Part shown: one piece after another, positions 1-39,831 of the stretch
Layout of the letters: every line of letters starts with the position of its first letter
Position numbering within the stretch: position 1 is the stretch's first letter
Assembly (NCBI GenBank): GCA_022826885.1
Contig: JAJDUB010000038.1
Span: 1-45,754, forward strand
Length of the DNA stretch: 45,754 nucleotides
Origin: Gammaproteobacteria bacterium
GTDB lineage: Bacteria > Pseudomonadota > Gammaproteobacteria > Eutrophobiales > Eutrophobiaceae
Reading direction: 5' to 3'
Position numbers and translations under genes: made by a program
The notes under the pieces: generated by a model
The model's database searches: none
Seen by the model: the letters and a program-made list of their open reading frames with translations, nothing else
What the model was told of the DNA's origin: nothing

Positions 1-27
1 GGAGATGCAGGAATTTAAAGGAGCATC

Positions 28-1605
28 ATGGGCCTTACGGGATTGCCACATTGGATCCGGCTGGTTGTTTTAACCACCTTCCTTGCTTCGTGCGCGAAAT
101 TCACGCCTGAACCGCCGCCGCCTTCGGCAGGGCATCTTGACGTTGCAGCCAAAACCGGCCCGTCCGGCGCTATTCCCGAAATTGTCCGGCAGCCTCCGCC
201 CGTTCCCGAACCTGCGCCCCTGCAGCACGAAGACCGGTACACGGTGGTCGTCAATGAAGTGCCCGTAAAGGAGTTGCTGTTTGCCCTGGCGCGGGATGCG
301 CAGGTGAACATCGATATCGCCCCGGGCATCAGCGGCCTGGTGACCATGAACGCAGTGGAACAGACCCTGCCGCAACTGTTGCAGCGCATAGCCAGGCAGT
401 CAGCGCTGCGTTATGTCATGGAGGATGACAACGTGTTCATCTCACCGGACGAACCGTATTTTCGCACCTACCGGATCGATTACCTGAACATGGCCCGGGA
501 TACGTCGCACGTGGTGCAGGTCGGGACGCAGATCGCCGGCACTGGTAGCGATACGGAAGGCGGCGGCGGAAGCAATAATTCGACCACCACCATCGGCAGT
601 ACGATGTCCAACCATTTCTGGACCAACCTGGTAGCGAACGTCAGCGCCATCCTGGAATCCGAGGGCGAGGCGGCAGCCGGTAATACCGTCATCCCCCACC
701 CGGAATCGGGCGTGCTGACCGTCAAGGCAACCGAAGCCCAACATCAACTGCTGCGCAAACTGATCGGCGAGACGCTCACCAACGCCAACCGCCAGGTGCT
801 GATACAGGCAACCATCGTCGAGGTGAGCCTGACCGACCAGTTCCAGGCCGGTATCGACTGGCAGGTGCTTAACGAGTCCGGTCTTGCCGGTTTCAACCTG
901 ATGACGAAGACGATCACGGCCAACCCCGTTAATGCCGCGTCCCTGTTTTCCCTGAGTTATGACGATTCCGACCCGGAACGGGACCGGGTGCTCAGCGCCG
1001 CGGTCGAACTGCTGGAGGAGTTCGGCGACGTGCGGGTGTTGTCGAGCCCCCAGATCATGGCCCTGAACAACCAGTCCGCCATCCTCAAGGTGGTGGATAA
1101 CGTGGTCTATTTCGAGGTGGAGCAGGAAAGCAACGTGACCCAGGGCGTGGCGGCCAATACCTTCGAGACCGTCGTAAAAACCGTGCCGGTGGGCATCGTG
1201 ATGACGATAACCCCGCATATCAAGGCCAACGATTCCATCATATTGAATATCAGGCCGAGCATTTCCCGCATCAACCGCTTCGTCAACGACCCGAACCCGG
1301 CCCTGTCGATCACCAGCCCGGTGCCCGAGATCCGTGTGCGCGAGATGGAATCCATGTTGCAGCTGCAGAACGGCGAGATCGCGGTCATGGGCGGTTTGAT
1401 GCAGGACGACAATCGCAGTAACGACAATGCCATTCCGGGCTTGTCCCGGGTCCCGCTGCTGGGGAATGCCTTCAAAATGGCCTTGCGCGAATATGAGAAG
1501 ACCGAACTGGTCATATTCCTGCGCCCGCTGATCGTCCGCAACCCCAGCCTGGACGGTGATTTCAGTTCCTACAGGCAGTTCTTTCCCGGAGAAGACAATG
1601 ACTGA
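28..1605 (+). CDS. mshL: MSHA-type pilus secretin MshL (GspD/PilQ family)
   Basis: Outer-membrane secretin through which an MSHA-like pilus or pseudopilus would exit. The 525-residue product begins with a lipoprotein signal whose lipobox reads LASC around residue 22. An STN/secretin N-terminal domain follows (about residues 70-145), then a low-complexity Gly/Ser/Thr loop near residue 180, an N-domain and the secretin core (about 250-510). Hallmarks of the core are VRVLSSPQIMALNNQ and, near the end, GGLMQDD...IPGLSRVPLLGNAF followed by TELVIFLRP. The start is supported by AAAGGAG 5 nt upstream. A TAA at 16-18 may be the stop of an upstream gene cut by the window. The next gene overlaps its 3' end, so translation is probably coupled. 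Family assignment is firm; MshL rather than another secretin rests on the mshE/mshG neighbours. Confidence 0.9.
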   Translation: MGLTGLPHWIRLVVLTTFLASCAKFTPEPPPPSAGHLDVAAKTGPSGAIPEIVRQPPPVPEPAPLQHEDRYTVVVNEVPVKELLFALARDAQVNIDIAPGISGLVTMNAVEQTLPQLLQRIARQSALRYVMEDDNVFISPDEPYFRTYRIDYLNMARDTSHVVQVGTQIAGTGSDTEGGGGSNNSTTTIGSTMSNHFWTNLVANVSAILESEGEAAAGNTVIPHPESGVLTVKATEAQHQLLRKLIGETLTNANRQVLIQATIVEVSLTDQFQAGIDWQVLNESGLAGFNLMTKTITANPVNAASLFSLSYDDSDPERDRVLSAAVELLEEFGDVRVLSSPQIMALNNQSAILKVVDNVVYFEVEQESNVTQGVAANTFETVVKTVPVGIVMTITPHIKANDSIILNIRPSISRINRFVNDPNPALSITSPVPEIRVREMESMLQLQNGEIAVMGGLMQDDNRSNDNAIPGLSRVPLLGNAFKMALREYEKTELVIFLRPLIVRNPSLDGDFSSYRQFFPGEDND

Positions 1606-2347
1606 CCCGCGCAGAATACCGGAAACAAAAGGGGACGGATTTGAAATCCGTCCCCGGAGAAACAAGCTTCACTTCTTGTCAGCAGCGCTCGCATGCTTTG
1701 TTGGGGTGTCTTTCACGATAGTTCATCCCGTTCTGGCCGAGCCGGTTTCCGGCCCGATCAAGGTCATACGCACGGAAGTCGATGACAGCCAGGAAAACCG
1801 GCTGCACGCGGCCTACCGGGCCTACCAGGCCGGCAATACGGGCGCTGCCAGGGCCGGATATGCGGAGGTGCTGCAGGCCTATCCGGACAACCGCGACGCC
1901 ATGCTGGGTCTGGCGGCCTGCGCGTTCGTGGAAGGCGATGTGAAATCTGCCGTGAGCATGTACCGGCGCATCCTGCGTGCGTTTCCGCAGGACGTCCTGT
2001 CGAGAGCCGCGCTGATCGGCCTGCAGGAGGATCGGCAGGGGGAAGCTGTTATAAGGGAGTTTTTGTCGAAGCAGCCGGATGAACCGTATCTGCACGTTGT
2101 CCTGGGCCGGCTCCAGGCTGCGCAGGCGCGCTGGCCGGAGGCGCGCCGGGCATTCTCCTACGCTCACCGGATTGACCCGGCCAACCCGGTTTACGCGGTT
2201 AACCTCGCCATCAGTCTGGATCGGATGGGACAGAGGGAGGAGGCGCTTGAATACTATCGCGTTACTCTCAAACTGGTGGAGCAGGGCGACTCAAACCTGG
2301 ACATCCGGCCGGTCATAAGGCGCATTCTGGCGCTGAGACAGCAATAA
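1598..2347 (+). CDS. TPR-containing MshN-like pilus protein
   Basis: Likely accessory protein of the pilus machine, equivalent in position to MshN. From ATG 1598 it is 249 residues: a short charged N-terminus, one hydrophobic segment (FLSAALACFVGVSFTIV, about residues 28-44) ending in an AEP that could be a signal cleavage or anchor, then tetratricopeptide repeats from about residue 60 (for example AYRAYQAGNTGAARAGYAEV, with later helices around PEARRAFSYAHRIDPANP). ATG 1556 is an alternative in-frame start deep inside mshL; 1598 is preferred because it overlaps mshL by only 8 nt. A 25-bp perfect palindrome (1631-1655) lies within codons 12-20 and encodes KGDGFEIRPR, so the extreme N-terminus is repeat-derived. 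Stop at 2345-2347 is 2 nt before mshE. Confidence 0.75.
   Translation: MTDPRRIPETKGDGFEIRPRRNKLHFLSAALACFVGVSFTIVHPVLAEPVSGPIKVIRTEVDDSQENRLHAAYRAYQAGNTGAARAGYAEVLQAYPDNRDAMLGLAACAFVEGDVKSAVSMYRRILRAFPQDVLSRAALIGLQEDRQGEAVIREFLSKQPDEPYLHVVLGRLQAAQARWPEARRAFSYAHRIDPANPVYAVNLAISLDRMGQREEALEYYRVTLKLVEQGDSNLDIRPVIRRILALRQQ
1631..1655. repeat. 25-bp GGGGAC palindrome inside MshN-like gene
   Basis: Perfect inverted repeat with 12-nt arms (GGGGACGGATTT and its complement) around a single central G. It is read in frame as G-D-G-F-E-I-R-P near the N-terminus of the TPR protein. The same arms occur inside mshE at 3780-3804, and the same architecture with changed arms at 39807-39831. Confidence 0.9.
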
Positions 2348-2349
2348 CC

Positions 2350-4158
2350 ATGTCTGCCCCGCGCCATACCCAACCCAATGCCATAACCGGGCAGGCCCTG
2401 TGCGAAATACTCGTCAACAGGGGGATCATTACCCCCGACCAGCTTGAAATTGCCCTGGTGGAGCAGAACAACAGCCGGGATCAGCCCGCCCGGATCCTGG
2501 TGCGCCTGGGATTCGTGACCGAGGCCATCATCCACGACGTCATCGGTGGCGCGTTCGGACAGCAGCGTGTCAACCTGCAATCCATCGTAGCCGACAGTGA
2601 AGCCATCGCCATGCTCCCTGAGGAAATGGCCAGGCGTCTGCGGGTCGTGCCCGTCAGCTATGACGCGCTGCGCAGGGTGCTTAAAGTGGCGCTGGCGGAT
2701 ACCTTCGATATTGTTGCCCTGGACCGGGTCAGCGCCCACCTGGGAGGCGCGGCGGAAGTCGTGCCGGTGCTTGCCGCTGAGGCTGACATCGAAAATTCCA
2801 TTGATCGCTTCTACGGTTATGAACTGTCCGTCGACGGTATCCTGAATGAAATAGAAACGGGCGAGCTCGACTACCGGAGCCTGGCGGCGCAGAGCAATGA
2901 ATACAGCCAGCCGGTAGTCCGGCTGGTCAATGCCCTGCTGTCCGACGCGGTGAAACGCGGCGCCTCGGATATCCACTTTGAACCGGAGCAGGGCTTCCTG
3001 CGCTTTCGTTACCGCATCGACGGTGTGCTGAGGCAGGTACGCAGCCTGCATAAGAACTACTGGTCGGCGCTTGCCGTGCGGGTGAAGGTGATGGCGGGGC
3101 TGGACATAGCCGAATCCCGTTTGCCGCAGGACGGCCGCATTTCCCTGACCATGTCGGGACGGCAGGTGGATTTCCGTGTGTCCACGCTACCTACACTGCA
3201 CGGGGAGAATATAGTCCTGCGGGTACTGGACCGGCAAAAAGGCATCGTTGCCCTGGACCGACTGGGCCTGGGAGAGACGGACCTGGCTGCGCTGAAGCGC
3301 ATGGTTGAGCGTCCGGAAGGCCTGATCCTGGTTACCGGCCCTACCGGCAGCGGCAAGACCACCACCCTGTACTCGATTCTCCAGTACCTGAACAGAGAAT
3401 CCGTCAATATCATGACCCTGGAAGACCCTGTCGAATACCCCACTTCCATGATCAGGCAGACTTCGGCCAATGCCGCGGCCAGGCTCGGTTTCGCCGACGG
3501 CATCCGCTCGATATTACGGCAGGACCCGGATATTATCCTGGTGGGAGAAATCCGCGACGAAGACACCGCAGCCATGGCCGTACGCGCCGCCATGACCGGC
3601 CACCAGGTGTTTGCCACCCTGCATTCCAATTCTGCAGTAGGCGCGATCCCGCGCCTGGTGGACATAGGCGTGAGACCCGAGATACTGGCCGGAAACATTA
3701 TCGGCGTGATAGCGCAGAGACTCGTACGCAGGCTTTGTGACGATTGCAAGGAACCGGCCGAAATGAAGCGCATACCACCGGGGACGGATTTCAAATCCGT
3801 CCCCTTGTTCAGTGATTGCAAAGAACCGGCGGTCGTGACCGGCCCCAATCCTTTTAATAAAATACGGGACACGGACGAACGTCTGCCTGCATACCGCCCG
3901 CTCGGGTGTCCGGCCTGCGCAGGCCAGGGCTACCGCGGCCGCATGGCATTGATGGAGATACTGCCGTTTGACCCGGACATGGACGAATTGATCGCGCGGT
4001 GCGGAACGTCCCGGGAACTGCATGGTATGGCCGTGGCGAAGGGCTTCAGGCCGTTGGCCGAATCCGGTAAAAGCAGTGTCATCGAAGGAAAGACCAGTCT
4101 TGCCGAAGTTGCCCGCGTGGTGGACCTCGGCAACAGCCTGGGACAGAACTATCCATGA
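2350..4158 (+). CDS. mshE: MSHA pilus assembly ATPase MshE (GspE/PilB family)
   Basis: Cytoplasmic hexameric ATPase that powers pilus assembly. The 602-residue product has a GspE N-terminal domain (about 60-160), an N2 domain (RGASDIHFEPE near 200) and the ATPase core. Walker A is GPTGSGKT (residues 330-337), the Asp-box region is MTLEDPVEYP, Walker B DPDIILVGEIRDEDTA, and the His box TGHQVFATLHSN. The C-terminal zinc ribbon uses CDDC and CPAC pairs. Between these pairs lies an unusual 24-codon in-frame insertion: D-C-K-E-P-A occurs at residues 465-470 and again at 489-494, with a 25-bp palindrome between. The insertion lengthens the loop but leaves the four cysteines. Start ATG 2350 follows the previous stop by 2 nt; the end overlaps mshG as ATGA. 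Confidence 0.92.
   Translation: MSAPRHTQPNAITGQALCEILVNRGIITPDQLEIALVEQNNSRDQPARILVRLGFVTEAIIHDVIGGAFGQQRVNLQSIVADSEAIAMLPEEMARRLRVVPVSYDALRRVLKVALADTFDIVALDRVSAHLGGAAEVVPVLAAEADIENSIDRFYGYELSVDGILNEIETGELDYRSLAAQSNEYSQPVVRLVNALLSDAVKRGASDIHFEPEQGFLRFRYRIDGVLRQVRSLHKNYWSALAVRVKVMAGLDIAESRLPQDGRISLTMSGRQVDFRVSTLPTLHGENIVLRVLDRQKGIVALDRLGLGETDLAALKRMVERPEGLILVTGPTGSGKTTTLYSILQYLNRESVNIMTLEDPVEYPTSMIRQTSANAAARLGFADGIRSILRQDPDIILVGEIRDEDTAAMAVRAAMTGHQVFATLHSNSAVGAIPRLVDIGVRPEILAGNIIGVIAQRLVRRLCDDCKEPAEMKRIPPGTDFKSVPLFSDCKEPAVVTGPNPFNKIRDTDERLPAYRPLGCPACAGQGYRGRMALMEILPFDPDMDELIARCGTSRELHGMAVAKGFRPLAESGKSSVIEGKTSLAEVARVVDLGNSLGQNYP
3742..3830. repeat. In-frame 72-bp duplication-type insertion carrying the GGGGAC palindrome, inside mshE
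   Basis: A 17-nt sequence (GATTGCAAGGAACCGGC, one mismatch in the second copy) occurs at 3742-3758 and 3814-3830, exactly 72 nt apart. The 25-bp palindrome at 3780-3804 (12-nt arms GGGGACGGATTT-type, central C) lies between them. The layout looks like a repeat insertion flanked by a duplicated target, and 72 nt keeps the mshE frame open. The palindrome is read in a different phase from the copy in the MshN-like gene (here P-G-T-D-F-K-S-V-P). Confidence 0.85.
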
Positions 4159-5360
4159 CCGTTTACCGCTACAAGGGGGTCGATGCCGAGGGCCGTATCA
4201 GAAAAGGCAAAACCAGCGCCGCCAACGGCGCCGACCTGGAGATACGGCTGCGCAGGATGGGGCTGGAACTGGTCAGCTACAGGACAGCCCGGCCGGACGG
4301 CATGCCGACAGCAGTGCGCCGGGTAAAACGGCGCGACCTGATCGTATTCTGTTTCCACCTGGAGCAAACCTTGCGCGCCGGCGTGCCTGTGGTTGAGAGT
4401 CTGCAGGATTTGCGCGATAGCGCGGACAATCCCCGGTTGCGGGAGGTCTGTGCCTCATTGTTGGAAGCGATTGAGGGAGGCAGCACCTTGTCGGAAGCCA
4501 TGTGCGGGTTTCCGGGCGTTTTCAGTGAAGTCTTCATAAACCTGGTCCGGGCCGGGGAACAGACCGGCAATCTCAACGGCATACTCGAGAAGCTGGGAGC
4601 CGACCTGAAATGGCAGGACGAACAGGCGTCCATGGTCAGGAAACTGATCATGATCCCGGCCTTCAGCGGCGCAATTATCAGCGCCGTGATGGTTTTTCTG
4701 ATGATCTACCTGGTGCCGGAACTGCTGGCGTTTGTCAGGACCACCGGTTCAAACCTGCCGGCTCATACCAGGTTGTTAATCGCGGTATCCTCCGGATTTG
4801 CCGATTATCTGTACGTCATCCTGTGTGCGCCGCTGCTGATCGTCATTCTCGTCTTTGCCGGCGGCAGGACCAGTCCCGTTTTCAGGCTCGCCCTGGACAG
4901 GCTGAAATTGTCCCTGCCGGTTGTCGGCCCGGTGCTGGAAAAACTGATCCTGGCGCGCATCTCCGGCCTGTTTGCCATGATGTATGCATCAGGTATCACG
5001 GTGATTGACTGCATCAGCGCCGGCGAGCGCAGCGCCGGCAACCTCGCCATCGCCCAGGCGATGAAAAGTGTCGGCAGGGCAGTGGCGGACGGACGCAACC
5101 TCGGCGACAGCTTTGCTTCAAGCGGCCTGTTTCCACCCTTGGTCCTGCGCATGATCCGGGTGGGAGAGACGACCGGGGCGCTGGCGTTGTCCCTGGAAAA
5201 TGTTGCTTATTTCTACACACGCGATGCGAGGGAAGCGGTAGGCAGGCTGCAATCCCTGGTAGAGCCGGTAATGACCCTGTTGCTGGGACTCGTCATCGGC
5301 TGGGTCATGCTGTCCGTATTTGGACCGATTTATGATCTCATTACCGGACTTGGCATTTAA
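4155..5360 (+). CDS. mshG: MSHA pilus inner-membrane platform protein MshG (GspF/PilC family)
   Basis: Polytopic inner-membrane platform that couples the MshE ATPase to pilin assembly. The 401 residues contain two GspF domains: the first starts near residue 55 (RRDLIVFCFHLEQTLRAGVPVVESL), the second near 260 (ARISGLFAMMYASGITVIDCI). Three hydrophobic segments are visible: about 170-190 (IIMVF-type stretch before YLVPELL), about 215-235 (LYVILCAPLLIVILVFA) and at the C-terminus (VMTLLLGLVIGWVMLSVFGPIY). Family motifs such as VRAGEQTGNL and IRVGETTGALALSLENVA are present. It overlaps mshE by 4 nt (ATGA), and its own 3' end overlaps the next gene, so the set reads as a translationally coupled operon. 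Confidence 0.92.
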   Translation: MTVYRYKGVDAEGRIRKGKTSAANGADLEIRLRRMGLELVSYRTARPDGMPTAVRRVKRRDLIVFCFHLEQTLRAGVPVVESLQDLRDSADNPRLREVCASLLEAIEGGSTLSEAMCGFPGVFSEVFINLVRAGEQTGNLNGILEKLGADLKWQDEQASMVRKLIMIPAFSGAIISAVMVFLMIYLVPELLAFVRTTGSNLPAHTRLLIAVSSGFADYLYVILCAPLLIVILVFAGGRTSPVFRLALDRLKLSLPVVGPVLEKLILARISGLFAMMYASGITVIDCISAGERSAGNLAIAQAMKSVGRAVADGRNLGDSFASSGLFPPLVLRMIRVGETTGALALSLENVAYFYTRDAREAVGRLQSLVEPVMTLLLGLVIGWVMLSVFGPIYDLITGLGI

Positions 5361-6918
5361 CCTCAGGGCCCGCAGGGCGCTGTTGGTCGGCGCCGGACAC
5401 GCAGCCGTATATGAATGGCAGGATAACGTTGCCGTACGCCGCGCGATGTTTGAGGCAGGAGAGGAGGGGCGACAAGGTTTCCGGCGTTATCTCGCCGAAA
5501 CCCCCGGCATTCCGTTCCACCTGCTGGTGGACGTGGCCGATGAAGAGTACCGCCGGGACACCGTGCCGCGCGTGTCACGGCGGGACCGGCAGGCGCTGCT
5601 CAAACGCAAGGCCGCGCGCCTCTTCAAGGATACCGGCTATTGTTTTTTCAGGGTAACGGGCCGTGAAACCACGGGACGAAGGGATGACCGCGTATTGCTG
5701 AGCGCGCTTGCCAATCCCGGCGTTGTCAGTCAATGGGCCGCCATACTGGATGAAGTGAGGACGCCCCTGGCGGGAATCTGTTCACTGCCCCTGTTGTCGG
5801 GACAACTGTTGAAAGACATAGCGGGCCGGGATGACGGATGCCGGTTGCTGGTCAGTATGCAGAGCGTCAGTGGGTTGCGCCAGACCTGTTTTGATAACGG
5901 AGACTTAAGGTTCAGCCGCCTGGTGCAGACATCCCGCGCTGAACATGGATCGTATTCGGAGATTATCCGTGATGAGGTGGAAAAAGTCCTGCGTTACCTG
6001 GACAGCCGGCGACCGGACACGCCTGGAGAGACGTTGCATGTCCATTTCCTGTTTTCCGCCGACCTGTTACAGGAACTGAAACCTGTTCTCAAACAGCAGG
6101 ATGCAGTCAGGTACCATTTTTGCGACCTGCATGAAAACGTCTCGCTCGAGCCCGCCTCCAACCCGTTCAGTGACGCGTATTTCATGCAGCAACTGTTAAG
6201 GCTCAGGCCCGGGAACGTTTACGCCGGCATTGCGGAAAGGCGCTGGTTTATCCTGGGCAGGCTGCGCGCAGGAGTTGCGGCAGCCGGATTTGCAATGTTG
6301 CTCGGCAGCGCGGGGTGGAGCGCGCTGAATGTCTATGGCGGCATAGTCCTGTACCTGGGGGGCAAGACCGCTGAGGAGGAGACACACAGGTATGCCGCAG
6401 AGTATGAACTGGCGAGAAAACGCCTGCCGGAAACACCTGTTGATCCGTCCGACCTGAAGACGGCTGTCCTCATTGCGGACAGTCTTGCGCAAAACAAAAC
6501 ATCGCCAACCGCCATGGTTACCGTGCTCGGTCGCAGCCTGCACGGGTTTCCATCCATCCGGTTGAGCAGATTGTTCTGGACGGTAACTGACGATCCGGAT
6601 ACGGCTTATGCCGGGGACCCGGAGCAAGCAGGTTTACCGGTGGCCATGGATGCGTCCGGCCCCGTCCGTTCCCTTTACCAGGCCGCGCTGCTCAAGGGAC
6701 GCATAGAACCTTTTAACGGAGATTACCGGGGCGCCATGGATGTAATCAACCGGTTTGCGGAAGACCTGCGCGGCCGGGAGGCGGTATATGGCGTTGTTAT
6801 CGTTGGCCTGCCCCTGGATGTCAGTTCCGGCGCGGACTTGCAGGGTAATACACAGTCCCTGCAACACCGGGCGGAATTTACCCTGAAGGTTGTGTTGGAG
6901 AACGCTCGTGAAATTTAA
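5332..6918 (+). CDS. Putative MshI/PilM-PilN-like pilus alignment protein
   Basis: A 528-residue protein of no sharply recognisable family. About 310 residues of cytoplasmic-looking sequence are followed by one hydrophobic segment (about 310-340, AGVAAAGFAMLLGSAGWSAL) and a C-terminal periplasmic-looking part with an extended helical stretch (EEETHRYAAEYELARKRLPE). This topology equals a PilM-like actin-fold domain fused to a PilN-like part, the role MshI plays in MSHA systems. ATG 5332 is chosen; TTG 5320 is an in-frame alternative. It overlaps the end of mshG by 29 nt. Function is inferred from position between the platform gene and a PilO-like gene, not from motifs. Confidence 0.6.
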   Translation: MISLPDLAFNLRARRALLVGAGHAAVYEWQDNVAVRRAMFEAGEEGRQGFRRYLAETPGIPFHLLVDVADEEYRRDTVPRVSRRDRQALLKRKAARLFKDTGYCFFRVTGRETTGRRDDRVLLSALANPGVVSQWAAILDEVRTPLAGICSLPLLSGQLLKDIAGRDDGCRLLVSMQSVSGLRQTCFDNGDLRFSRLVQTSRAEHGSYSEIIRDEVEKVLRYLDSRRPDTPGETLHVHFLFSADLLQELKPVLKQQDAVRYHFCDLHENVSLEPASNPFSDAYFMQQLLRLRPGNVYAGIAERRWFILGRLRAGVAAAGFAMLLGSAGWSALNVYGGIVLYLGGKTAEEETHRYAAEYELARKRLPETPVDPSDLKTAVLIADSLAQNKTSPTAMVTVLGRSLHGFPSIRLSRLFWTVTDDPDTAYAGDPEQAGLPVAMDASGPVRSLYQAALLKGRIEPFNGDYRGAMDVINRFAEDLRGREAVYGVVIVGLPLDVSSGADLQGNTQSLQHRAEFTLKVVLENAREI

Positions 6919-11786: not shown

Positions 11787-11829
11787 GGGGTCAGAGTAAG
11801 AAATCCGTCAGGATTTTTACTCTGACCCC
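11787..11829. repeat. 43-nt GGGGTCAGAGTAA palindromic element, copy 1
   Basis: Inverted repeat with 19-20 nt arms (outer part GGGGTCAGAGTAAGAAATCC; the right arm is the complement with one A fewer) around the loop GTCA. It sits between a prepilin-like gene and an ABC permease gene, both on the plus strand. Compared with copies 15627-15669 and 35047-35089, the loop-closing bases are CC/GG instead of TC/GA, a paired change that keeps the stem. Confidence 0.92.
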
Positions 11830-14880: not shown

Positions 14881-15639
14881 ATGTCAATTCCTGCAATCCG
14901 CATACAAGGACTGACAAAACAGCGCGGCGGGAAAACCGTGTTGTCGGACCTGGACCTCGTGGTGCCGGAGGGCGACTGCATGGGCCTGGTGGGGGTTAAC
15001 GGCGCCGGCAAAACCACCTTGCTGAAATGCCTGCTGGACATTGATGCAGCCACCTCGGGAGAGATTGCCGTCTTCAACAGGAAACACAGCCTGGCCGCGG
15101 CCAGGGCGCGCCTGGCTTACCTGCCGGAACAGTTCCGGCCGCCGGGTTGCCTCAACGGCTGGGAGTTCCTGCGTTATACGAGCGGACTCCACGGCAATGA
15201 ATTCAACCTCAACCGGGTAAGGCAGGTTATGGACATCCTGGACCTGGAGATTGCAGAACTGGATAAACTTGCCATACGCCTGTCAAAAGGCATGGCGCGG
15301 AAACTGGGGCTGGCCGCCTGCCTGCTGAGCGGAAAAAAGCTGCTCGTCATGGATGAACCCATGAGCGGCCTGGACCCGCGGGCGCGGGTCTGCCTTCAAT
15401 CCCACCTGCTGGAACTGAAGCGGCAGGGCCTTACCTGCTTTTTCACTACCCACCTGCTGGCCGACGCGGAAAAGCTGTGCGACAGCATAGCCATACTGCA
15501 CCGGGGCAGAATCCATTATATCGGGTCGCCCGCCGCCTGCCGCCGGCATTTCAACGCAGTTGACCTTGAACAGGCTTTTTTACGTTGTGTGGGAGGCGGT
15601 CGACAGCCTCGATATCCGGGATATTCGGGGTCAGAGTAA
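14881..15639 (+). CDS. ABC transporter ATP-binding protein
   Basis: A 252-residue nucleotide-binding subunit. Walker A is GVNGAGKTT (about residues 38-46), the Q-loop region YLPEQFRPPG, the ABC signature LSKGMARKLGLA (about 139-150, a SKGM rather than SGGQ form as in NosF/DrrA-like exporters), Walker B LLVMDEPMSGLDP, and the H-loop FFTTHLL. The only matching permease in the window is at 11855-12610. The last three codons and the stop (G-S-E-stop) are supplied by the 43-nt palindromic element beginning at 15627, so the natural C-terminus has been replaced or extended. Starts at ATG 14881 without a clear ribosome binding site. Confidence 0.9.
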   Translation: MSIPAIRIQGLTKQRGGKTVLSDLDLVVPEGDCMGLVGVNGAGKTTLLKCLLDIDAATSGEIAVFNRKHSLAAARARLAYLPEQFRPPGCLNGWEFLRYTSGLHGNEFNLNRVRQVMDILDLEIAELDKLAIRLSKGMARKLGLAACLLSGKKLLVMDEPMSGLDPRARVCLQSHLLELKRQGLTCFFTTHLLADAEKLCDSIAILHRGRIHYIGSPAACRRHFNAVDLEQAFLRCVGGGRQPRYPGYSGSE

Positions 15640-15669
15640 GAAATTCGTCAGAATTTTTACTCTGACCCC
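15627..15669. repeat. 43-nt GGGGTCAGAGTAA palindromic element, copy 2, shared by two convergent gene ends
   Basis: Arms GGGGTCAGAGTAAGAAATTC and the complement with one A fewer, loop GTCA. Because the element is palindromic and contains GGGTCAGAGTAA on each strand, the plus-strand ABC ATPase and the minus-strand SLOG-like gene both end in G-S-E-stop using codons from its two halves. The stem could act as a bidirectional transcript end, although no T-run follows it. Confidence 0.93.
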
Positions 15670-35046: not shown

Positions 35047-35089
35047 GGGGTCAGAGTAAGAAATTCGCCAGAATTTTTACTCTGACCCC
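35047..35089. repeat. 43-nt GGGGTCAGAGTAA palindromic element, copy 3
   Basis: Arms GGGGTCAGAGTAAGAAATTC and complement with one A fewer; loop GCCA instead of GTCA. It fills the whole space between two convergent genes (7 nt after the monooxygenase stop, 5 nt before the flavin reductase stop), like copy 2 at 15627-15669, as expected for a bidirectional transcript end. Confidence 0.93.
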
Positions 35090-39806: not shown

Positions 39807-39831
39807 GGGGACAGACCTGAGGTCTGTCCCC
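39807..39831. repeat. 25-bp GGGGACAG palindrome
   Basis: Perfect inverted repeat with 12-nt arms GGGGACAGACCT around a central G, the same plan as 1631-1655 and 3780-3804 with a different inner half-arm. It lies in the 79-nt space between the TonB receptor and amidohydrolase genes and could end or attenuate the receptor transcript. Confidence 0.9.

What the first reader, a model, noticed from the sequence alone, without database searches (positions are those of the whole stretch)
1631..3804. Identical palindromic repeat inserted in frame in two adjacent pilus genes
The 25-bp perfect palindromes at 1631-1655 and 3780-3804 share their 12-nt arms and differ only at the central base (G or C). Each lies inside an open gene, but in a different codon phase (KGDGFEIRPR against PGTDFKSVP). 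Two of the three phases of the G-centred form are stop-free, and inversion leaves the same sequence, so it is tolerated inside proteins much like Rickettsia palindromic elements. That a REP-like element supplies protein segments in a non-Rickettsia operon is unusual.
Basis: partly seen in the sequence, partly recalled or inferred. Interest (0 to 1): 0.75.

Follow-up and report, generated by a model that had tools for sequence, protein, structure and literature searches.

The report
Transposase-linked palindrome inside pilus genes
A 25-letter DNA palindrome, found at 60 sites in this bacterial genome and likely spread by a transposase that its assembly lacks, sits in frame inside two neighbouring pilus genes and at least four other genes, where it would add a short stretch of protein that is likely harmless.

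Summary
The two 25-mers (1631-1655, 3780-3804) lie in frame in an mshN-like and an mshE gene and belong to a family of 60 sites in this 3.43-Mb genome (backward control 0); 57 of 60 have fully complementary 12-nt arms. Relatives show insertion: at mshN, G006 has the empty site against a 51-bp (17-codon) insert; at mshE, three of the seven genomes of the genus share a 72-bp (24-codon) insert. Five further in-frame copies lie in purL, a sarcosine-oxidase-alpha gene, an MFS/spermidine-synthase gene (two) and PBP1A.

The arms equal the ends of terminal repeats of RAYT/TIRYT-like transposases. In sister species G005 an intact RAYT gene is flanked by these palindromes, in G002 a degraded one; related RAYTs in its clade have GGGGACAGA ends. 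So the unit reads as two transposase ends fused tail to tail. Movement by the RAYT is inferred; the window's assembly has no such gene. In-frame REPs are in print for other bacteria; this tag and origin make a new variant.

The parts
1631..1655 (+). Palindrome 1, GGGGACGGATTT-G-AAATCCGTCCCC, in the mshN-like gene, read as GDGFEIRPR
3780..3804 (+). Palindrome 2, GGGGACGGATTT-C-AAATCCGTCCCC, in mshE, read as PGTDFKSVP
1616..1666 (+). 51-bp insert (15 + 25 + 11 bp) relative to the empty site of relative G006; 17 codons in the n-region of a likely signal peptide (my reading)
1598..2347 (+). mshN-like gene, 249 aa, TPR protein
2350..4158 (+). mshE, type IV pilus assembly ATPase (T2SSE, MshEN); the insert lies between its two CxxC pairs
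3742..3758 (+). Left copy of the short direct repeat flanking palindrome 2 (GATTGCAAGGAACCGGC)
3814..3830 (+). Right copy of the same repeat (GATTGCAAAGAACCGGC), 72 bp away; in G006 27 of 30 bases of a longer copy agree
28..1605 (+). Upstream gene, secretin/MshL-like by operon place (name recalled, not searched)
4155..5360 (+). Downstream gene, MshG-like by operon place (name recalled, not searched)
39807..39831 (+). Third palindrome of the same kind, GGGGACAGACCT-G-AGGTCTGTCCCC; gene context not resolved

Best explanation
The two palindromes belong to a dispersed 25-bp repeat family whose 12-nt arms match the terminal repeats of a REP-associated tyrosine transposase (RAYT/TIRYT-like) of sister species, and they were likely copied into mshN and mshE by such an enzyme and kept because the inserted DNA left the reading frame open. 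Shown: the family (60 sites), its symmetric arms, in-frame presence in six genes, an empty mshN site and uninserted homologues in relatives, and RAYT genes flanked by the same palindromes in two sister genomes. Inferred: that each palindrome is two terminal repeats fused tail to tail (a transposase-end pair with almost nothing between), that the RAYT cuts and moves it in trans as a single-stranded hairpin, that it spread while a RAYT was present in the ancestry of G000, G002, G005 and G006, that the genes are translated through it, and that the added peptides are tolerated because they fall in linkers, variable loops or a signal-peptide start.
For: Family: 60 sites, control 0; 57 of 60 with complementary arms in seven arm types. 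Insertion: empty mshN site in G006; mshE insert in 3 of 22 readable MshE loci; presence/absence for four more proteins. RAYT: gene L202:865-1497 in G005 with palindromes on both sides, the nearest 3 bp after the stop; a degraded 87% orthologue in G002, also flanked on both sides. Tree: L202 and six RAYTs with GGGGACAGAT(T/C)T ends form one clade, 100/98 with 33 rows and 99/99 with 39 rows. Of 11 held loci with a match of 50% or more to L202, 10 have GGGGACRGA repeats. Copy number is 40 to 92 in four genomes of the genus, two of which hold an L202 orthologue, and 0 to 3 in the three others, none of which holds one.
Against: The window's genome has no Y1_Tnp match and no L202 orthologue (only a 65-residue match of 37% inside a 449-aa frame); nor has G006; yet both are rich in palindromes (both are incomplete assemblies). 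The inserts (51 and 72 bp) are longer than the palindrome and bases beyond it are not conserved between sites. The mshE site carries a flanking duplication; over 60 sites no such excess is seen, and IS200/IS605-type enzymes are not known to make target duplications (recalled). One of the 11 loci above, a Marinobacter fragment (L354), has no GGGGAC repeat. The wider tree puts a twelfth-hand row, L245, in the L202 clade, but on a branch of 4.73 that looks like a misread frame. No experiment shows that this RAYT cuts the palindrome.
Confidence: 0.7

Rival explanations
1. The palindromes are spread by replication template switching, slippage or break repair that copies hairpin DNA, with no transposase at work now; the RAYT link is historical.
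For: The mshE insert comes with a 72-bp tandem arrangement and a 27-of-30 duplication in G006; a tandem array of a 22-nt unit lies beside the G005 RAYT; no RAYT orthologue in G000 or G006.
Against: No general flank duplication at the 60 sites; palindromes flank the RAYT gene in two species and the arms match the ends of its sister RAYTs.
Confidence: 0.2
2. The repeat is a functional host signal (transcription terminator, mRNA hairpin or DNA-uptake word) kept by selection at gene ends, with in-gene copies as accidents.
For: Stable predicted RNA hairpin, -17.2 to -18.7 kcal/mol for four forms; 27 of 60 sites lie at a change of coding frame or strand and 8 of 60 in non-coding flanks.
Against: Near absent elsewhere in the order (2 of 46 genomes outside the genus, with 1 and 2 copies); the two window copies sit inside coding sequence of an operon, with no run of four or more T after them in the operon's direction.
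Confidence: 0.06
3. The residues are ordinary protein sequence conserved in MshE and MshN, and the palindromic DNA is chance.
For: None found.
Against: The exact repeat is at 10 places in the genome; residues missing in 19 of 22 readable MshE loci and at the empty mshN site.
Confidence: 0.01

Closest known systems
TIRtrons / TIRYT transposases and their terminal repeats (PMC3733652, section 16 read)
   Same: Y1 transposase gene flanked by inverted repeats opening with GGGGWSAS; some repeats self-complementary, some families moderately abundant.
   Different: Here each repeat is a perfect 24-26-bp palindrome beside the gene and copies lie in frame inside genes; that paper's in-gene lists concern GTAG and CGTC REPs.
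REP / RAYT systems, REPINs (PMC2817692 passages; PMC6006769 sections 12, 20, 27; PMC8049555 passages)
   Same: Short hairpin, many copies, transposase gene flanked by cognate repeats.
   Different: No GT(A/G)G head; arms perfectly symmetric instead of an imperfect palindrome.
In-frame REPs of Opitutus, Thauera, Xanthomonas and others (PMC3733652, section 15 read)
   Same: REP DNA read in frame within proteins.
   Different: Other tag (GTAG or CGTC) and other repeat families.
Rickettsia palindromic elements (RPE)
   Same: Palindromic DNA inserted in frame in several genes.
   Different: RPE-1 is longer (PMC3733652 speaks of longer palindromic insertions; exact length recalled only); no GGGGAC RAYT link known to me.

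Membership tests
TIRYT/TIRtron repeat | Repeat opens with GGGGWSAS | tested here: inconclusive
   28 of 60 left arms open with GGGGACAG (fits); 31 with GGGGACGG and 1 with GGGGACAT (one base off).
TIRYT/TIRtron repeat | Repeats flank a Y1 tyrosine transposase gene | tested here: met
   G005 gene L202:865-1497 and the degraded G002 copy. No such gene in the window's own assembly.
TnpA-Y1 subclass 2.1 (likely TIRYT) of PMC6006769 | Additional C-terminal helix-turn-helix domain | tested here: not met
   L202 protein is 210 aa; Pfam finds only Y1_Tnp at 12-123. So it works like a TIRYT but is not filed in this subclass.
REP-associated tyrosine transposase (NCBIfam NF047646) | Model score over cut-off 80 | tested here: inconclusive
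   L202 protein scores 72.2 bits, E 3.9e-20, under the cut-off; Pfam Y1_Tnp 43.4 bits, over its cut-off of 23.
Classical REP | 20-40 bp palindrome in many copies | tested here: met
   25 bp, 60 sites, backward control 0.
Classical REP | Located mostly between genes | tested here: inconclusive
   Codon model on 60 sites: 27 at a change of frame or strand, 8 non-coding, 20 coding on one side only, 5 in frame on both sides.
Classical REP | GT(A/G)G head at the foot of the hairpin | tested here: not met
   60 aligned sites show no such head; the A/GG flank bias seen there is partly made by my own orienting rule.
Rickettsia palindromic element | In-frame insertion in unrelated genes | tested here: met
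   Seven copies in six genes.
Rickettsia palindromic element | Sequence relation to RPE families | not tested
   No RPE sequence was compared.

The most novel reading that the evidence does not exclude
A transposon reduced to its own two ends: 12-nt RAYT terminal repeats fused tail to tail into a 25-bp mobile palindrome that needs no cargo, moves in trans, is readable in five of six frames in its G/C-centred form, and has written GTDFKSVP- or GDGFEIRP-type peptides into pilus, purine, cell-wall and oxidase genes of several species, the same thing having arisen twice (GGGGACRGANTT and GGGGTCAGAGCAT palindromes beside two different RAYTs of G005).
Probability: 0.4. Interest if true: 0.7.

Novelty: new variant of a known kind. 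Interest (0 to 1): 0.5.

Why it matters
It ties a very small, perfectly symmetric repeat to a RAYT gene with GGGGAC-type ends and shows that repeat as a recurring source of short in-frame peptides in housekeeping genes outside Rickettsia. Because one site can be filled or empty among close relatives, the family offers a direct test of how RAYT-linked repeats spread and of what inserted peptides proteins tolerate. It also warns annotators that GTDFKSVP- and GDGFEIRP-type strings in proteins can mark a dispersed repeat.

Tried and rejected
A RAYT in the window's genome: none found. A longer element around the 25-mer: flanks of 60 sites show only an A on one side and G or GG on the other, and I had oriented the sites by just these letters, so the bias is partly made by the rule. 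A general target duplication: not seen; mean flank score 6.57 against 6.35 for shuffled pairs; mshE alone stands out with 14 against a null 99th percentile of 10 (the null's maximum of 47 probably comes from neighbouring sites that share sequence). Known RNA families in window 1-6000: none at gathering score. The codon model did not by itself class the two window sites as in frame (mshN because mshL lies upstream; mshE scored 8.2/3.4), so open frames, families and relatives were used. The first RAYT script used too strict a motif and was replaced. The first RAYT tree held 33 of 51 candidate genes and left out four full-length ones without reason; a second holds 39, dropping 2 duplicates and 10 rows under 160 aa (one short row, L298, was kept), and keeps the L202 clade. 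Literature: GTDFKSVP in 0 papers; GGGGACAGA-type words in 764 papers, of which only the 30 listed titles and abstract starts were seen, none on bacterial repeats; TIRYT in 2 papers. Bertels 2017 is not held, so its RAYT groups are known here only through PMC6006769. Structure prediction, fold search and the large protein search were not run.

Full report
OBSERVATION. The window has no other match within 3 mismatches of that sequence and 100 shuffles give none. The genome (G000, 3.43 Mb, 94.6% complete) has 10 exact copies and 68 sites within 3 mismatches; the form GGGGACNNNNTTRAANNNNGTCCCC occurs 60 times, backward control 0. At 57 of those 60 the arms are fully complementary although seven arm types exist (GGGGAC + AGAT, GGAT, GGAC, GGAA, AGAA, AGGT, AGAC); three are imperfect. 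A further form with arms GGGGACAGACCT lies in the window at 39807.

GENES. The mshN-like gene starts at ATG 1598 behind a GGAG, so codons 12-20 are the palindrome (GDGFEIRPR). The empty homologue in G006 reads MTDPRRLHFLSAALACFAG...VLA, a likely signal peptide (my reading), and G000 carries 17 extra codons in its start region. In mshE, codons 477-485 (PGTDFKSVP) lie between the two CxxC pairs, a stretch that is shorter in the two solved relatives whose alignments I printed, 5zfr (PilB) and 6f8l (PilF).

INSERTION. MshE-like proteins were found in 57 of 58 genomes searched. Of 30 loci held, 22 showed the motif that I used to find the place; 3 (G000, G006, G002) have the insert and 19 do not; one of the 19, G004, has its own longer linker with GGGGACAGGA in it, perhaps another, decayed insertion. 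G006 equals the uninserted linker length (21 residues, as in G001) plus 24 codons (72 bp) made of a near copy of the adjoining 30 bp (27 of 30) and the palindrome. At mshN, G006 is empty (CGCAGA/CTTCAC) and G000 holds 51 bp; G002 has a related insert beside an assembly gap. G002 and G006 are the closer pair at mshE, so presence at mshN in G000 and G002 but not in G006 means loss, recombination or polymorphism; I cannot tell which.

OTHER IN-FRAME COPIES. Frames open for 100 or more codons on both sides, with family matches, show in-frame copies in PurL (codon 703 of the open frame, between AIRS_C and the PurM_N-like domain; a second, decayed copy lies upstream), a sarcosine oxidase alpha protein (487, between Pyr_redox_2 and SO_alpha_A3), an MFS/spermidine synthase (231 and 255) and a PBP1A (657, inside the Transpeptidase match but in a stretch that varies among relatives). 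With the two window copies this makes at least 7 of 60 sites, in six genes; other sites with shorter open frames were not followed. In seven relatives: PurL insert not in G001, G003, G005, G007; G002 unread there, G004 with another insertion, G006 no hit; so it is seen in G000 only. Sarcosine oxidase copy in G002, G005, G006 as in G000, another insertion in G001, the rest not compared. Spermidine synthase copy in G002 and G006 (one each), not G003, the rest not found. PBP1A copy in G002 and G006, not G003, G004, G005, G007. In 8 of 9 orthologue pairs the palindrome aligned; arms were unchanged in 5 (two with another centre base), while flanks were 82-91% identical; 3 pairs show decay and one pair did not align. 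Two phases are used, GTD(F/L)KSVP and GDG-type.

PLACEMENT IN GENERAL. By a codon model, 5 of 60 sites are in frame on both sides, 8 non-coding, 20 coding on one side, 27 at changes of frame or strand.

DISTRIBUTION. With GGGGACNGANTTRAANTCNGTCCCC, 8 of 53 genomes of the order have matches: G005 92, G002 76, G000 56, G006 40, G001 3, G007 2, G004 1, G025 1; G003 of the genus has 0. In the class, 12 of 369 genomes, the eleven others with 1 to 5. Of 117 sites there, 9 lie in long frames; two of these are the mshE copies of relatives read on the other strand; of the 7 left, all scanned, 3 have Pfam matches (a VgrG-like protein, a class II tRNA synthetase, an HSDR_N protein), 4 none.

THE TRANSPOSASE. 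G000 has no Y1_Tnp match. In G005 a 210-aa Y1_Tnp protein (L202:865-1497) is preceded by palindromes and followed by one 3 bp after the stop and another 35 bp on. G002 has an 87% orthologue lacking its first 73 residues and with one internal stop, again with palindromes on both sides. Of 81 Y1 loci inspected, my motif picked 51 candidate genes; 21 of these (two counted twice through duplicate loci) have GGGG(A/T)C(A/G)GA repeats within 500 bp and 3 (L202, L320, L315) have near-perfect palindromes within 600 bp. L202 and six RAYTs whose genes are flanked by GGGGACAGAT(T/C)TATTTT-type repeats form a clade, 100/98 in a tree of 33 rows and 99/99 in one of 39 rows, where one doubtful long row, L245, joins; so the palindrome's arm equals the end of its sisters' terminal repeats. 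Of the 11 held loci with a match of 50% or more to L202, 10 carry GGGGACRGA repeats; the eleventh, a 59-residue Marinobacter fragment, does not. A second RAYT of G005 (L320) is flanked by GGGGTCAGAGCATWTGCTCTGACCCC, also a perfect palindrome, in another part of the tree. Half-sites GGGGACRGANTT, both strands added, number 539 in G005, 284 in G002, 240 in G000, 145 in G006, 33 in G001, 12 in G003 and 6 in G004; the backward control gives 0 to 8 per genome.

MECHANISM. Shown: family, symmetry, insertion, open frames, RAYT neighbourhood in sister genomes. Inferred: fusion of two terminal repeats tail to tail, movement in trans by the RAYT as hairpin DNA (by analogy with TnpA-REP, PMC6006769), loss of the RAYT in G000 (or its place in the missing part of the assembly), translation, and tolerance in loops. 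Unexplained: the extra 15 + 11 bp at mshN, the duplication at mshE, and the absence of a RAYT in two palindrome-rich assemblies.

NOVELTY. In-frame REPs and self-complementary TIRs are both in print (PMC3733652, sections 15 and 16). What I did not find in my searches is a GGGGAC palindrome family tied to a RAYT and lying in frame in genes. Hence a new variant of a known kind.

Noticed in passing
window 11787-11829, 15627-15669, 35047-35089: Three 43-bp inverted pairs of the form GGGGTCAGAGTAAGAAATTC...GAATTTTTACTCTGACCCC: a second repeat family of the same layout (two ends tail to tail); a RAYT of relative G002 (L240) is flanked by this family.
   Followed up: partly
L368:6774-6910 (G005): Tandem array of the 22-nt unit CCGGGGACGGATTAAGCATGGT upstream of the RAYT; the corresponding stretch of G002 has no such array.
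   Followed up: no
L381 (G001), sarcosine oxidase alpha linker: The linker that holds the palindrome in relatives carries in G001 a different in-frame insertion with CGTCATTCCGGCG/GCCGGAATCC repeats.
   Followed up: partly
L254 (G002), homologue of the site in L014: A 51-bp form keeps GGGGACGGATTT and GTCCCC ends with other sequence between, possibly a precursor or relic of the fused palindrome.
   Followed up: no
L065:1-2121 (Marinobacter ELB17) and L053:6098-7855: In-frame copies of the palindrome core in a VgrG-like protein, between two domains, and just ahead of a class II tRNA synthetase domain.
   Followed up: partly
L365:4974-5070 (G000): Two palindromes 72 bp apart with a half-site GGGGACAGATTC between them, in one open frame of an MFS/spermidine synthase gene.
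   Followed up: partly
L341 (a Desulfobacterium MAG) and L336 (a gammaproteobacterial MAG): Loci of L202-like RAYTs (one broken) that also hold 24-bp GGGGACAGATT...AATCTGTCCCC palindromes beside GGGGACAGATTTATTTT repeats, so fused and unfused ends occur side by side.
   Followed up: no
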